Positions 1 through 5,157 of a DNA stretch of 5,157 bases are shown here, piece after piece. The stretch is from contig JAFZZD010000730.1 in the NCBI GenBank assembly GCA_017615955.1, forward strand, positions 1 to 5,157. The letters are read 5' to 3'. Numbering within the stretch: the first letter of the stretch is position 1; every line of letters begins with the position of its first letter. The position numbers were made by a program, and so were the translations under genes. Below the pieces are notes generated by a model. That model worked only from the letters and a program-made list of their open reading frames with translations. It made no database searches and was not told the DNA's origin. This DNA comes from Victivallales bacterium (GTDB taxonomy: Bacteria > Verrucomicrobiota > Lentisphaeria > Oligosphaerales > Oligosphaeraceae).

Positions 1-1265
1 ACCGTCTTGCGGCATGTGACCTCATAGCCGCCATTGGCAATGGAGCCCCGGTCAGGCATATATGCATTGCGCCCATTGGTGTTGCTGCAAAGCAAGTTAT
101 ATTCAAACGGTCCGAATTTGCGCAATCTCAATGAGAAGATGGAGAACATCTCAAACGGGAATGGGCAGAGCGCCACTGGTCCAAAGGAAACAAGGGTCTG
201 CTCAAATTCAAATATTGGCTCCAAGGGCTTCTTCCAGGTCTCGATTGCAATCTTCGCCAGCTGGTAATCCACCGGCGGTTCCACTTCCTTGTCTGTCTGC
301 GCATCGTATTTCTGCAAGATTTCCTTTGCCTCATCCTCAGTCATTGGAATGGACTGGGGCAATTGAATGGTCACATTCTGGCAGTCCAAAGGCAAATCCT
401 TGCGGAATTCGCGGATATCATCCAGCAGCCTGAGTGCATCTGCCGCCGCGCGATAGCCCACCTCCTCTGCAGAGGCCTCTCCATCGCCGCCTCCCGCCGA
501 AAAGCCCTTGAAGGCAGGATATTCCAGCCAGCGGCTTGTCCTTGGACCCACATCGCCCAAAGCGCCATTAATAAAGATGACAGGCACCTTGTATCGATCG
601 GCGATGCGCTTTTTCATCACGCCACACCAGTCGCTGGAAATGGCAAACGAACCACCCATTGCAGTGTTATGCCCACTGCAGTGAACCATGATGCCAAGTA
701 TCTCCTTTGTTTCGCTGTCGATGAAGAGAGCGGTGGTCATATTGTCATCGTACATCAAATCGGGGTCGCCAATGAAGCCTGTAACTTTACCTTCTTCGTT
801 CATGCCGCGGCGTGAAATGCCAGTCTTTGTCTTTCCAGCGGAAAAGCCCATGCTGCATTCACGTGCTGCCAATTTTGCACGTTTCACCGCATCGGCAATC
901 AAGGGAGCCGCGTTCTTCGTGTATTCAACACCCTTGTTTTCTGGGTCCACAGCAACGCGACCAAGTGTGCGCATATATGTCGTATGCGGCGCAGAATGGG
1001 TATGAGAACAGCAAAGATTGACATTCTGCCCAGGAATCCCTGTGGCCTCGGTAATTGCAGCGCGAATGTACTGTGTCAATTCCCAGTCCACAAAGCACCA
1101 GTCCATGCCAATCACCGCAACTTCCTTGGCACCGTCGCTCAAATACATGGCAACCGCATTCAGCGGGGAATGCACGGATGTCGCAAGGCGCTCTGGCCGC
1201 CCATAGCCAGTCAAATATATCCCCAGTTCCGGTGTAACGTCACTTATCGCAAAACCAACCTTCAT
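1..1265 (-). CDS. Neutral/alkaline ceramidase-superfamily protein (partial, 3' end outside window)
   Basis: The frame is open from ATG at 1265 to the left edge: 421 codons with no stop or frameshift. I read it by reverse-complementing the sequence. The start MKVGFAISDVTP sits 7 nt after a good AAGGAG site. No signal peptide or membrane segment is seen, so a cytosolic location is likely. Family motifs occur in the usual order: SHTHSAP (residues 87-93, H88 and H90), HCSGHNT (195-201, H195), GALGDVGP (234-241), PFEMF (370-374, E372) and AYMP...GGYEV (401-415, Y402). In characterised neutral ceramidases the matching His, His, Glu and Tyr residues bind zinc, and a Ser in GDVSPN is the nucleophile. 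Here that hexapeptide is GDVGPR, with Gly240 in the Ser position. Bacterial relatives are usually annotated as neutral ceramidase, but the substrate of this branch is not known to me. Probably only a few tens of residues are missing at the C terminus. The family call is firm; ceramidase activity is doubtful. Confidence 0.88.
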   Translation of the reverse strand, partial: MKVGFAISDVTPELGIYLTGYGRPERLATSVHSPLNAVAMYLSDGAKEVAVIGMDWCFVDWELTQYIRAAITEATGIPGQNVNLCCSHTHSAPHTTYMRTLGRVAVDPENKGVEYTKNAAPLIADAVKRAKLAARECSMGFSAGKTKTGISRRGMNEEGKVTGFIGDPDLMYDDNMTTALFIDSETKEILGIMVHCSGHNTAMGGSFAISSDWCGVMKKRIADRYKVPVIFINGALGDVGPRTSRWLEYPAFKGFSAGGGDGEASAEEVGYRAAADALRLLDDIREFRKDLPLDCQNVTIQLPQSIPMTEDEAKEILQKYDAQTDKEVEPPVDYQLAKIAIETWKKPLEPIFEFEQTLVSFGPVALCPFPFEMFSIFSLRLRKFGPFEYNLLCSNTNGRNAYMPDRGSIANGGYEVTCRKT

Positions 1266-1278: not shown

Positions 1279-1297
1279 TTATGCAAAACCAAAACAA

Positions 1298-1398
1298 GAG
1301 GTAATTGCAAAATTCCTGGCAAAACCTGCCTTTTCCGCTGGCTAAAGCCAGCGGCTACGATAGTTTGCGGAGTGGCGCAGGAGTTTTGAAATTGCCTC
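1298..1398. mobile_element. MITE-like 101-bp imperfect palindrome with a 4-bp flanking direct repeat
   Basis: The two ends are inverted copies. The left arm (1298-1318) begins GAGGTAATTGC. The right arm (1378-1398), read on the minus strand, begins GAGGCAATTTC. They match at 18 of 21 positions; the mismatches are at arm positions 5, 10 and 16. Directly outside both ends stands ACAA (1294-1297 and 1399-1402), as expected for a target-site duplication, though 4 bp can match by chance. A perfect 8-bp hairpin lies at the centre (1335-1354), with two weaker 4-bp stems beside it (1318-1330 and 1366-1379). No coding capacity is seen. The element fills most of the gap between the stop of the hydrolase gene (1423) and the start of the ceramidase-like gene (1265). 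In plus-sense RNA two of the three mismatches become G-U pairs. It could instead be an RNA structure affecting readthrough between the genes. The palindrome is seen; mobility is inferred. Confidence 0.55.
1335..1358 (-). repeat. REP-like hairpin headed by GTAG
   Basis: On the minus strand the tetranucleotide GTAG (1358-1355) is followed at once by CCGCTGGC, loop TTTA, and GCCAGCGG, a perfect 8-bp stem with a 4-nt loop. A GTAG or GGAG head beside a short GC-rich palindrome is the hallmark of REP sequences that are handled by REP-associated tyrosine transposases (RAYTs). An intergenic position just behind a gene also fits. It is not a standard intrinsic terminator: on the minus strand the stem is followed by AAAA, and on the plus strand by CTACG, so neither strand has a U tract. 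Only one copy is in this window, so repetitiveness is unproven. Confidence 0.55.
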
Positions 1399-1422
1399 AC
1401 AAGTCAAAATTAGTATTCACAA

Positions 1423-4400
1423 TCACTTCTTTTCAGGTGCGCCGGAGAGCACAAACTTGCGATAGCAGGAAGGATCCTTGCCGCCAGTCGTGCCGTTGGT
1501 CAAAGCCATGTTGAAGGCAGTGCTTCCAGTGGCGGATTCACGGTCGAATATGGCAAGATTGAAGCCAAAGACCGTGCCCTTTTCAGGCTTGAGGCCCAAT
1601 TCCTCCCAGGAAATGCGGAATTCCACAACCATGACATGCTCGCTCTTTTTATTAATGACAGGCGTCAGGTCGCTGCGGTCGCCGCGTTTCGCCTTGTCTG
1701 GATGCAGATGGCACCATGCCGCAGGCCCCTTTGCGGACTGGCCGAATGAAATGTCCAGGTCATCTGCGTCATAGCCGCGTGTCTTCAATTCGTCGCTCAA
1801 TGCATTGTTCAATGGATCAATGGAGATTTCGATTGCGTCCTGGTTCCATAGCATGCTGTCAGTCTTGGTAAAGAACCACTGGTCATCCGTGATCTCCGTA
1901 CCAATGTAGAAGAATTTCTCATCGTAGCCCAGGTATATCTTGGCGCTCAGGTCGTCCTTTCCAGTCCAGAGACCATTGGGGGCGGCATCCACGGGATGCA
2001 GGAAACTGGAATTGTCCATTAAGATTGGCTCGACGCCCTCGAATGACTTGAGCGAACCATCCAGCTTGACATCCTTCAGGAATCTGATTTCATGTCCCTT
2101 CAGCGCAACAGGGAAGGTGGTTTTCTTGCCATTGTATTCAAAGGTGAAGTTGGAGCTGTAGTTGACGCCTACCGCCTTCTTGAAGTGGAATGGGAATGTA
2201 TGCAGAGACTTGCTGTCCCCAACAGGCAACTCCACGTCCTTTGCACCTGCATCTGGATTGGAAATACGTATTTTCACATTGTCGCCCTTGAGATTTCTGA
2301 ACACGAGACGGACGTCCGTCGTGGAGGCGAACTGGTATTCCGCCGCAAATGCGGGCAACTGGTATTCGCCCTTCTTGAGACGGGCCAGGAAGGCTTTCTG
2401 GCTTTCGGACGACTCAATAAAAATTGGATAGCCGGAAAGACTGCCATTGAACTCGCATGGATTGCCCATGATGTCATAGCACACTGCGTCCTTTGGCAGA
2501 ACCAGGCTCGTCTCAACCACAGGCTCGCTGCTGCTCTGCCAGAGAGCCGTCATGATCTTGCCGTTCTTCTTGAATATGTAGCCCCATATCTCGGGCGATG
2601 GATGGAATTCCACGGCGTCCCTGGCGTTGCACAGCAGCCTGGCAATGGCGGCGGTGGAGGCAAGGATGGGGCGGGGATTGTTCTTCAGCCACATTCCCAT
2701 GTCGTAGTTCTTGCTTTCCTTCATTGCCACGCCATAATGGGGCACCCAGTACTGTATGCCCAGCGCCTTGGCTATGATCATTCCACGCTGGCTATTCGCC
2801 GCATTATCCTTCAGTGCCTGGTGGTCAAAGGGAATGGTGCTCACGTAGCCGTAGCCCTTTTCCGCAATGGCCAGCTCCTTGTCCCCCACCAGTTTGCGCA
2901 CATCCAGTATCTGCTCGCGGAAACCGCCCTTCTCCTCCGAAACGGGACGGAAGCCAGGGCCATATACATAAGGCGACACATACCAGTCAGGCGCAACTAT
3001 GTCCATATACTGCAATGTCTTTGGCAGAGCATACTTGAGATAGGCGTAACTGGGATAGTCAACACCGGCCACGCCCATGGACGCCACCTTAAGGTTCGGG
3101 TTGAATGCCTTCACCTCGTCATGCACAATCTGCAGGTTGCGGAAGAAGCAATCCTCGAAATATGGTGACAGCCTGCGCGTGAGGTTGATCTCACCCGAAA
3201 CCATCCAGGAAGGCATCTTGTTGCCATAATGCTGAAGACATGCGTGGACATAGTCCCGTGTCTGCTGGAAATATTCTTCGGTATAGCCATTTTTCATCAT
3301 GTCAGGCAGCTGCTTGTTCAGCCATGCCGGCAATGCCCAGCTGCTTCTTCCCGACAAGCTCAGATGCCCTCGCGGCACCATGCCGCACTTCTCCGCCTCC
3401 GCCAGCAACTTGTCTGGATAGGTGAAGTCATACTGCCCTGGCTTTGGCTCGCTCTTGTACCGGAGGACAGGCACGGTAATGGATCCATAGCCCAATGCAC
3501 GGGAAACGGAAAAGAATTCCACCGTGATGTAATGATGGCACATTTCAAAGAAGGGATCGGGAGCCTCCACCTTCTCTGCCACGATGAAGGCACCTGTACG
3601 TTCGCCATATTGCCCGCCAGTCAGATTGACCTTCACTATGTAGTACCCGTTCTTTTCAGGTGCCTTGAACGTGATTTTGCCCTTGTCATCCACCTTTCCA
3701 TCAAGGACCTTCTTGTTGTAGAAATCCAAGACGGTATAGTTCGCGGCCCTGCCCTGCTTGTCAAACACGCATTTGAATTCCACCTGTTCGCCTGGCAGGA
3801 AGACGCCGCCCAGCTTGACTGCCTCCACCACCTTGATTGGCGAAGGCTTGTGCACTGCCTCGGACTTTTGCTGAAGCACTTCAGGCACATTGCCCGCATA
3901 GATGCCCAGGTCATCGAACCACACGGTGCCCAAATTGTCAGGCTTGCCCTTGTAGTTGTTGGCGTTATGCACACGCAGCGCAAGAACCACGCGTATTGTG
4001 CCTTCAGGCAGCTTTACATTGCCGCCGCAAAGGAGCCAGTCATTCTCGGGCTTCTGCCAGCTGGTGCCCTTGATGAATTCCTTCAGCTTCTTGTTCTTAT
4101 CACCGTAGCATGACAAATGCATGCTGGCGCACCATCCACGCGGAATGCCAGTGGTCTTGATGCGCCCCGCAAAAGTCAACTCGGTTAGTCCAGCGGGCAA
4201 CTTGACCGTCTGCTGTATGTTCGCCACCTTGTCCGGCTCGCCAAGGATCTTCAGGGATTTCTGGCCGGAGGCGAAAACCGCCTCGTCAATCTGCCCCGTG
4301 ATCAGGCTCAGACGCGAAAAGGAATTCACCCAGCCTTCCATTCCCTCTTCAAACGAGGGATTCTTCAGCAGATTCTCATTGCCAAAAACACAAAATGACA

Positions 4401-4437
4401 AGACCGCAAAAACAAGCAAAAAACTTTTCTTCAACAT
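1423..4437 (-). CDS. Secreted multidomain glycoside hydrolase-like protein (clan GH-A-type barrel, C-terminal CBM9/DOMON-like domain)
   Basis: The product has 1004 residues, from ATG at 4437 to TGA at 1423-1425. This start gives a signal peptide (MLKK, hydrophobic core to about residue 18, possible cleavage after VFG19) and has TTGGAG upstream. The frame stays open further upstream, but only inside the neighbouring gene. Domains in order: galactose-binding/CBM4_9-like, about 20-182 (NLLKNPSFEEG...WFDDLGIY); Ig-like linker, about 200-290; TIM barrel, about 293-590; beta domain, about 595-690; a second beta region, 690-785; CBM9/DOMON-like, about 788-1000 (LDG, YLGYDEKFFYIGTEITDD, WNQDAIEISID). 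In the barrel, E416 in WMVSGEIN is the likely acid/base and E526 in LAIAEKGYG the likely nucleophile, at the places expected for strands 4 and 7 of clan GH-A retaining enzymes. The usual Asn before the acid/base Glu is Gly415. I cannot name a GH family or substrate. It is probably exported and acts on a polysaccharide or glycoconjugate. A degenerate, non-catalytic barrel cannot be excluded. Confidence 0.87.
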   Translation of the reverse strand: MLKKSFLLVFAVLSFCVFGNENLLKNPSFEEGMEGWVNSFSRLSLITGQIDEAVFASGQKSLKILGEPDKVANIQQTVKLPAGLTELTFAGRIKTTGIPRGWCASMHLSCYGDKNKKLKEFIKGTSWQKPENDWLLCGGNVKLPEGTIRVVLALRVHNANNYKGKPDNLGTVWFDDLGIYAGNVPEVLQQKSEAVHKPSPIKVVEAVKLGGVFLPGEQVEFKCVFDKQGRAANYTVLDFYNKKVLDGKVDDKGKITFKAPEKNGYYIVKVNLTGGQYGERTGAFIVAEKVEAPDPFFEMCHHYITVEFFSVSRALGYGSITVPVLRYKSEPKPGQYDFTYPDKLLAEAEKCGMVPRGHLSLSGRSSWALPAWLNKQLPDMMKNGYTEEYFQQTRDYVHACLQHYGNKMPSWMVSGEINLTRRLSPYFEDCFFRNLQIVHDEVKAFNPNLKVASMGVAGVDYPSYAYLKYALPKTLQYMDIVAPDWYVSPYVYGPGFRPVSEEKGGFREQILDVRKLVGDKELAIAEKGYGYVSTIPFDHQALKDNAANSQRGMIIAKALGIQYWVPHYGVAMKESKNYDMGMWLKNNPRPILASTAAIARLLCNARDAVEFHPSPEIWGYIFKKNGKIMTALWQSSSEPVVETSLVLPKDAVCYDIMGNPCEFNGSLSGYPIFIESSESQKAFLARLKKGEYQLPAFAAEYQFASTTDVRLVFRNLKGDNVKIRISNPDAGAKDVELPVGDSKSLHTFPFHFKKAVGVNYSSNFTFEYNGKKTTFPVALKGHEIRFLKDVKLDGSLKSFEGVEPILMDNSSFLHPVDAAPNGLWTGKDDLSAKIYLGYDEKFFYIGTEITDDQWFFTKTDSMLWNQDAIEISIDPLNNALSDELKTRGYDADDLDISFGQSAKGPAAWCHLHPDKAKRGDRSDLTPVINKKSEHVMVVEFRISWEELGLKPEKGTVFGFNLAIFDRESATGSTAFNMALTNGTTGGKDPSCYRKFVLSGAPEKK

Positions 4438-4471: not shown

Positions 4472-5157
4472 TTACCACAAACAAAGCGCTGCATTGATTC
4501 CGATTGCGCGTCCAGGCGGATTCTGGGCCTGGGCTTTCCAGCCGTTGCGCCAGGTCTCCTCAAACACACCAGGAGAATTGAAGCCCTCCACATGGTAGTC
4601 CATGAACAGGAAATTGCCATTTCGGTGCGCATTCAAATAAAAGCGGGGATTTGGAATGGTGCCGGAATATGCCTCTCTCACCTGGCTTACGGCACCGCCT
4701 TTGCTGTCAGCCCCGTAAGCAGTATAATCCTGTGCGCTGCTATAGCTGTCCCCCGCAAGAATTACCATTGAGAAATGATCGTACTGCCTGAGATCATACC
4801 AACGCCAATAGCTGTTGCTCGTTCCCGGCACGGCGGCCACTATCCCGCGGTTCACACCTGTCAATGCGCCTGACGTGATATGGCAGGCATTCAGGCCATA
4901 CGAGCACCTGGAGGGATTGGACCCAGTGATCTTGCCAAAGTTCTTAGGCCATTTCCATGGCCAGCGGCCAGGGCACACAAAACTGTCCTCGTAGATGTTA
5001 GCATACCCCTCGTAGAATGGTGTCCATGCGCTGAAGGACTTGAAGTCCCAGGGCAGCACGCCCTCGTAGTCGCTGTTGTAGAGAGCAAAGAACATTCCAA
5101 CTTGCTTCAGGTTGTTGGCGCAGGCAATGCTCCGTGCCTTGGTACGGGCGTTGGACA
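4472..5157 (-). CDS. Prepilin-like (type II secretion pseudopilin-type) protein, partial, 5' end outside window
   Basis: The frame is open from the right edge to TAA at 4472-4474, with 227 residues visible. The visible part begins SNARTKARSIACANNLKQVG, which in this family directly follows the N-terminal prepilin cleavage/methylation helix. That helix (typically FTLIELLVVIAIIAILA-like) is therefore just off the window, and about 35-45 residues are missing. Further marks are LYNSDYEGVLPW (25-36), FVCPG (59-63) paired with RCSYGLN (83-89), the SMVILAGDS strand (129-137), and NAHRNGNFLFMDYHVEG (175-191). The last is a variant of the H-x9-DG motif common in these PVC-group proteins: here there are 8 residues between H177 and D186, and Tyr replaces Gly. 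A short Trp-rich stretch, RWPWKWP (64-70), follows the first CP motif. The stop is 34 nt before the hydrolase start, so cotranscription is likely. Large families of such proteins occur in Lentisphaerota genomes; their exact role is unknown, with surface display or secretion inferred. Confidence 0.85.
   Translation of the reverse strand, partial: SNARTKARSIACANNLKQVGMFFALYNSDYEGVLPWDFKSFSAWTPFYEGYANIYEDSFVCPGRWPWKWPKNFGKITGSNPSRCSYGLNACHITSGALTGVNRGIVAAVPGTSNSYWRWYDLRQYDHFSMVILAGDSYSSAQDYTAYGADSKGGAVSQVREAYSGTIPNPRFYLNAHRNGNFLFMDYHVEGFNSPGVFEETWRNGWKAQAQNPPGRAIGINAALCLW

What the first reader, a model, noticed from the sequence alone, without database searches (positions are those of the whole stretch)
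1294..1402. MITE-like palindromic element with a REP-type core between two genes
Seen in sequence: 21-bp terminal inverted arms with 18 matches, bounded exactly by the direct repeat ACAA, enclosing a perfect GTAG-headed hairpin. Each trait alone is modest; together they suggest a small non-autonomous mobile element. The nested form, with long outer arms plus a REP-like inner hairpin, differs from a plain REP or BIME and could be a family of its own. Mobilisation by a RAYT or a DDE transposase in the host is inferred.
Basis: partly seen in the sequence, partly recalled or inferred. Interest (0 to 1): 0.72.

Follow-up and report, generated by a model that had tools for sequence, protein, structure and literature searches.

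The report
Lentisphaerota MITE moved by IS1182-like transposases
A 101-base stretch between two genes is most likely a small jumping piece of DNA without genes of its own: a close relative has the same gene pair with the piece missing, and its ends match those of full-size jumping elements that carry the needed enzyme.

Summary
Window 1298-1398 has 21-bp inverted ends (18 matches; best of 500 shuffles 16), exact ACAA outside, and a perfect inner hairpin. It is a MITE. The nearest relative found (G007, a goat-rumen Victivallales MAG) has the orthologous gene pair with an empty site holding one TTGT. The ends are repeated up to hundreds of times in Lentisphaerota and Desulfobacterales genomes. 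Of 50 distinct elements, 18 have exact, all different 4-bp duplications (chance mean 0.63). Elements of 1.3-1.6 kb in Lentisphaerota carry the same ends around an IS1182-related transposase; plasmid relatives have similar ends, two of three with 4-bp duplications. The REP/RAYT reading is not supported for this copy: GTAG heads 2 of 34 G007 core loci, and four arm-rich genomes lack a detectable Y1 transposase. Open: G007 and seven arm-rich genomes show no such transposase, and 13 of 32 G007 loci fetched by the core lack a recognisable arm. Verdict: a new family of a well-known kind, with a probable autonomous partner.

The parts
1298..1398 (-). MITE, 101 bp (read on the minus strand to match the G007 copies)
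   Evidence: inverted ends, near full-length relatives in G007, empty orthologous site
1298..1318 (+). terminal inverted arm; its first 15 bases GAGGTAATTGCAAAA fit the ends of the full-size elements
1378..1398 (-). terminal inverted arm GAGGCAATTTCAAAACTCCTG
1294..1297 (.). 4-bp target-site duplication, copy 1 (ACAA)
   Evidence: a single TTGT at the empty site in L081
1399..1402 (.). 4-bp target-site duplication, copy 2 (ACAA)
1335..1354 (.). inner hairpin CCGCTGGC-TAAA-GCCAGCGG, shared by the G007 copies
1355..1358 (-). GTAG beside the hairpin; other words, mostly GGAG or GGTG, in most G007 copies
3..1265 (-). downstream flanking gene, ceramidase-like (PF04734); its start and the AAAAGGAG ahead of it are also present at the empty site
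1423..4437 (-). upstream flanking gene, CBM9 domain and weak GH10 match

Best explanation
Window 1298-1398 is a miniature inverted-repeat transposable element (MITE). It entered the intergenic region after the window's lineage split from that of G007 (a clean loss in G007 is possible but less likely). A DDE transposase recognises the GAGG[TC]AATT[GT]CAAAA ends, and insertion duplicates 4 bp of target. The mover is most likely an IS1182-related transposase (DUF772 + DDE_Tnp_1, about 365-415 aa) encoded by 1.3-1.6 kb elements with the same ends. Shown: ends, duplication, empty site, multiple copies, full-size elements with the same ends. Inferred: that this transposase acts on this MITE in trans, and that it binds these ends.
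For: Empty orthologous site: L081 in G007 carries both flanking genes (95% aa identity for the ceramidase-like protein; 91% and 87% nt on the two sides) with one TTGT and no element; flanks joined without the element score 197, with it 115. Three near full-length relatives in G007 at 81-83% identity. Arms: 158, 235 and 218 hits in G002, G005 and G006, with 0 for the pattern read backwards. 18 of 50 distinct elements have an exact 4-bp duplication, 18 different words, against a shuffled mean of 0.63 (maximum 5 in 2000 shuffles); 0 of 50 at offsets 1 to 6 and 1 at offset 7. Full-size elements: of 30 loci around transposase matches, 8 (L195, L200-L205, L207) have both ends exact to GAG[GC][TC]AATT[GT]CAAAA; L220 is a 540-bp form with both ends exact and only a gene remnant. 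G221 has 7 copies of 1334 bp, 5 of 7 with a 4-bp duplication, though their ends are looser (2-3 substitutions). Plasmid relatives: L237 (annotated tnpA transposase) has ends GAGCCTCTTGCAAAAGG and GAGCTTCTTGCAAAACT with TCCT duplicated; L238 (annotated IS1182 family) has GAGGCTCTTGC-type ends with TGGT duplicated.
Against: No match to the transposase in G007 or in G281, G177, G234, G264, G267, G189 and G258, which have 30 to 364 arm hits (G007 has 10); DUF772 in 1 of 13 genomes searched, G005. They are draft genomes in which repeats are often lost, but another mover cannot be excluded there. 32 of 50 elements lack an exact duplication. Of 12 full-size loci other than G221, 2 (L197, L203) have the duplication, 9 do not and 1 ends at the contig edge. 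The third plasmid relative, L239, has similar ends without a duplication. The window's own genome is not held, so copy number in the host is untested.
Confidence: 0.9

Rival explanations
1. It is a REP/BIME-like element copied by a RAYT (Y1 tyrosine transposase) acting on the GTAG-headed hairpin; the outer arms are secondary.
For: Perfect hairpin with GTAG head in the window; G007 has 3 Y1_Tnp matches; the core occurs at 53 places in G007 at up to 3 mismatches; 13 of 32 loci fetched by the core lack a recognisable arm, and some are core arrays (L243, L252).
Against: GTAG head in 2 of 34 G007 core loci, whereas the motif is kept in >90% of members of most GTAG families (PMC3733652, passages seen); 19 of 32 core loci have a MITE arm; the empty site and 4-bp duplication fit DDE transposition of the whole element; arms abound in G002, G006, G264 and G267, which have no Y1_Tnp match.
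Confidence: 0.04
2. It is a MITE, but its mover is a DDE transposase of another clade; the IS1182-like elements only resemble it at the ends.
For: G007 and seven arm-rich genomes lack a match to the transposase; DUF772 in 1 of 13 genomes.
Against: 15-bp end identity in 8 of 30 loci and equal duplication length where present; genomes with 20 or more arm hits hold the transposase more often (7 of 14 against 28 of 274, Fisher p 4e-4; cut-off set after seeing the counts, relatedness not corrected). ISAzo13 (PF07592) loci had no good arm beside them. Among 30 PF01609 loci, ends on both sides of the gene were seen at L175 and L185 and, looser and closer together, at L179, which lies at the place of L211 of the same clade.
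Confidence: 0.12
3. A conserved structured RNA or regulatory element of this gene pair.
For: Stable fold.
Against: Absent at the orthologous pair in G007; present elsewhere in G007; no Rfam match at gathering scores; pair changes no better than shuffled (covariation score reached by 118 of 500 shuffles); no terminator-like site in 1200-1480.
Confidence: 0.02

Closest known systems
IS1182-family insertion sequences (plasmid records annotated 'IS1182 family transposase' or 'IS1182-like element ISUnCu17 family transposase')
   Same: Transposase 43-49% identical to L175 over 98% of its length on 9 plasmid records; in three fetched examples GAG- or GAA-headed ends with a CTTGC word, in two of them a 4-bp duplication
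   Different: The window element has no gene; four Lentisphaerota transposases score 73-96 bits for NCBIfam IS1182 against a cut-off of 270 and also match IS5 models below cut-off, so they are a side branch
Bacterial MITEs such as Nezha, RUP, NEMIS, ERIC (listed in PMC3733652, passages)
   Same: 70-300 bp, 15-30 bp inverted ends, no coding capacity
   Different: Not compared by sequence here; other hosts
GTAG REP families with RAYT (PMC3733652, passages)
   Same: Short hairpin with GTAG at one side in this copy; cores in arrays at some G007 sites
   Different: GTAG not conserved, core often within MITE ends, 4-bp duplication of the whole element, no Y1 transposase detected in some arm-rich genomes

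Membership tests
MITE | Short (70-300 bp), no transposase gene | tested here: met
   101 bp, no transposase gene in the window
MITE | Terminal inverted repeats of 15-30 bp | tested here: met
   21 bp, 18 matches
MITE | Target-site duplication | tested here: met
   ACAA/ACAA; 18 of 50 family elements
MITE | Multiple dispersed copies | tested here: met
   In relatives. In the window's own genome not testable
MITE | Empty orthologous site | tested here: met
MITE of the IS1182-like group | Ends shared with an autonomous-looking element | tested here: met
   8 of 30 loci with both ends exact; L205 and L233 have GAGGTAATTKCAAAACC at both ends
MITE of the IS1182-like group | Transposase present in the same genome | tested here: not met
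   G007: 0 matches. Matches, some only remnants, in 7 of the 14 arm-rich genomes (G008, G009, G068, G130, G171, G247, G286). Draft genomes; window's own genome not held
MITE of the IS1182-like group | Mobilisation in trans by that transposase | not testable with these tools
   needs a transposition assay
IS1182 family (the partner) | Passes the NCBIfam IS1182 model cut-off | tested here: not met
   72.9, 89.7, 96 and 84.7 bits against 270 for 4 proteins
REP (GTAG) / RAYT | GTAG head conserved across copies | tested here: not met
   2 of 34 G007 core loci
REP (GTAG) / RAYT | Core dispersed independently of other repeats | tested here: inconclusive
   Of 32 G007 loci fetched by the core, 19 have a MITE arm (up to 3 substitutions) and 13 do not; some of the 13 are worn MITEs by eye, two are probably chance matches, a few are core arrays
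REP (GTAG) / RAYT | Y1 tyrosine transposase in the host | tested here: inconclusive
   3 Y1_Tnp matches in G007; none in 4 other arm-rich genomes of 12 searched

The most novel reading that the evidence does not exclude
The centre of these MITEs is a replaceable slot for foreign palindromes. In gut Lentisphaerota, copies with near-identical outer parts carry different centres, some with an extra REP-like insert of about 32 bp at differing positions. In G007 some cores stand without arms or in arrays. On this reading the hairpin of the window's family is an old captured REP that can still spread on its own, so a DDE-moved MITE would be carrying RAYT-type palindromes around.
Probability: 0.15. 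Interest if true: 0.5.

Novelty: new member of a known kind. Interest (0 to 1): 0.3.

Why it matters
It describes a widespread repeat of Lentisphaerota (at least one arm hit in 66 of 288 genomes searched, 20 or more in 14; single hits may be chance) and ties it to a probable autonomous partner, so that such hairpins need not be read as REPs or RNAs. Repeat-rich genomes without a detected mover also pose a testable question of how MITEs persist.

Tried and rejected
Viral-contig scans for the arms and for the 24-base core found nothing. ISAzo13 (PF07592), my first guess for the mover from a recalled table of end types, is present in 4 of 17 genomes; only arm-like words with 4 substitutions lie near some of its loci. 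The repeated contig ends of G001 could not be extended beyond 98 bases. A 153-base contig end in G183 looked like the start of a partner element; most of it matches another IS1182-type element (L149, 238 bits against the NCBIfam IS1182 cut-off of 270), apparently sitting in a MITE. 34-base end queries against plasmids and phages gave only hits of E 3-4. Paper searches on Lentisphaerota with MITE and on MITE with IS1182 or IS1182 duplications listed PMC5771137, PMC3852290, PMC11578231 and PMC3281130; I saw these as search listings only, and no listing described this family in the held library. PMC3733652 was seen as passages only. Paired changes in 10 aligned copies gave no covariation.

About counts: loci enter because they matched the arm or a related query, so the 50 elements are not a random sample; pairs that joined arms of two neighbouring elements count as misses. 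Of 53 core places in G007, one search printed about 50; I viewed 12 loci fetched by the core (10 with an arm), two more that had come in by the arm, and 20 further stretches (9 with an arm). The head count of 34 takes one head per locus (L036 holds two copies, both counted), adds L010, leaves out two stretches that are probably chance matches (L258, L259), and in arrays uses only printed units. In one search three of 10 aligned copies (L020, L113, L111) have a lost or diverged left arm. In one search a further two loci (L210, L211) have one substitution at each end around broken genes, four (L196-L199) have 2-3, and 15 of 30 show one end or none around the match.

Full report
What was checked. 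The window (5157 bp) has two genes on the minus strand beside the element, a CBM9/GH10-like one (1423-4437) and a ceramidase-like one (3-1265, running off the window), 157 bp apart. The fold is more stable than all 200 shuffles as DNA and as RNA. Rfam has no match at gathering scores.

Empty site. The window's own genome is not held. The nearest relative found, G007 (source of L010, record title Victivallales bacterium RGIG3456, goat rumen), holds the orthologous pair: the ceramidase-like protein is 95% identical, and the DNA is 91% and 87% identical on the two sides. Between the genes G007 reads TTTTGGTTTGTTTAAATGAATTTGCATAAAAGGAG, with one TTGT and no element. Window flanks joined without the element and one TTGT align over their whole length with one 3-base and one 2-base gap.

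Copies. G007 holds three near full-length relatives at other places, and a profile built from window and G007 copies finds further, mostly partial ones. In ten of these genomes the arm occurs 2 to 235 times at up to 1 mismatch, with 0-1 hits of the backward pattern each. In 288 Lentisphaerota genomes, 66 have at least one hit and 14 have 20 or more, up to 364.

Duplications. Pairing arms at 60-220 bp in the loci fetched by then, and in the window, gave 50 distinct elements; 18 have an exact 4-bp duplication, all 18 words different. Partners dealt at random give 0.63 on average; offsets 1 to 6 give 0 of 50, offset 7 gives 1. The remaining 32 lack it, through decay, mispairing or recombination.

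The mover. A search for DDE_Tnp_1 in 17 genomes led to L175 and L185, where MITE-type ends flank homologous DUF772/DDE_Tnp_1 genes. The L175 protein has matches, some only remnants, in 35 of 288 Lentisphaerota genomes. Of 30 loci around such matches, 8 have both ends exact to GAG[GC][TC]AATT[GT]CAAAA (two of them the L175 and L185 places again), L220 is a 540-bp form with exact ends, two have one substitution per end, four have 2-3, and 15 show one end or none. G221 has seven 1334-bp copies on one large contig, 5 of 7 with a 4-bp duplication. Of 12 other full-size loci, 2 have it, 9 do not, 1 cannot be judged. On plasmids, relatives are annotated as transposase, IS1182 family or ISUnCu17; of three fetched, two have similar ends with duplications TCCT and TGGT, and one has similar ends without. 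NCBIfam places the Lentisphaerota proteins nearest IS1182 but far below its cut-off. Genomes with 20 or more arm hits hold the transposase in 7 of 14 cases against 28 of 274 (p 4e-4; relatedness not corrected). Against this, G007 and the other seven arm-rich genomes have no match. They are drafts, and collapsed repeats are visible at contig ends in G001 and G239, but a different mover there remains possible.

The core. In G007 the hairpin occurs at 53 places at up to 3 mismatches, against 1 for the backward pattern per strand. Of 32 loci fetched by the core, 19 have a MITE arm next to it (10 of 12, 9 of 20). The first 12 were the best core matches, which favours intact copies. Of the 13 without, several (L101, L247, L251, L253 by eye) still show worn MITE sequence, L258 and L259 are probably chance, and L243, L252 and L256 are arrays or solitary cores whose origin I cannot settle. 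The head word is GTAG in 2 of 34 loci. This is not what GTAG REP families look like (PMC3733652, passages), but independent spread of the core is not excluded. Y1_Tnp genes are found in 8 of 12 searched genomes but not in G002, G006, G264 or G267, which are rich in arms. Pairing in the aligned copies shows no covariation beyond shuffles, so nothing points to selection on an RNA fold.

Verdict. An ordinary kind of mobile element, firmly shown, of a family for which the searches named found no description, tied to an IS1182-like partner. The REP idea is not needed for the window element; arrays and nested inserts keep a weaker form of it alive, and for that reason I raised the novel reading from 0.12 to 0.15 on checking.

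Noticed in passing
L051, L060, L065, L073, L074, L078, L177: Gut Lentisphaerota MITEs of 164-166 bp have forms of 184-200 bp with an extra REP-like palindrome in the centre, at differing positions; of 5 distinct copies found by a pattern of the type TGTCC[CT][CG]CCGTAGC...GCGAAGG, 4 lie inside a MITE.
   Followed up: partly
L103 (G007:C637), L099 (G007:C106), L110 (G007:C734), L241 (G007:C181), L243 (G007:C333), L246 (G007:C665), L252 (G007:C604): The MITE core, or a larger part of the element, is expanded into short tandem arrays at several G007 sites.
   Followed up: partly
L069 / G183:C22 end; L149: An IS1182-type element with GGGGCTGTTGCAAAACCTC ends (transposase 514 aa) apparently inserted inside a MITE; the 153-base query has matches in 37 of 288 Lentisphaerota genomes, some only to its MITE end.
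   Followed up: partly
L047 and L124-L125 (G009): Very short forms: a 22-bp full palindrome GAGGCAATTTTGAAATTGCCTC next to another element.
   Followed up: no
L205/L225 and L114-L119 (G239): A 1606-bp element with MITE-type ends; six arms of the same sequence on six contigs, five of them within about 120 bp of a contig end, where a long G run appears in several.
   Followed up: partly
window 4472-5155: Partial minus-strand gene with a weak DUF1559/SBP_bac_10 match (E 0.0034, below cut-off).
   Followed up: no
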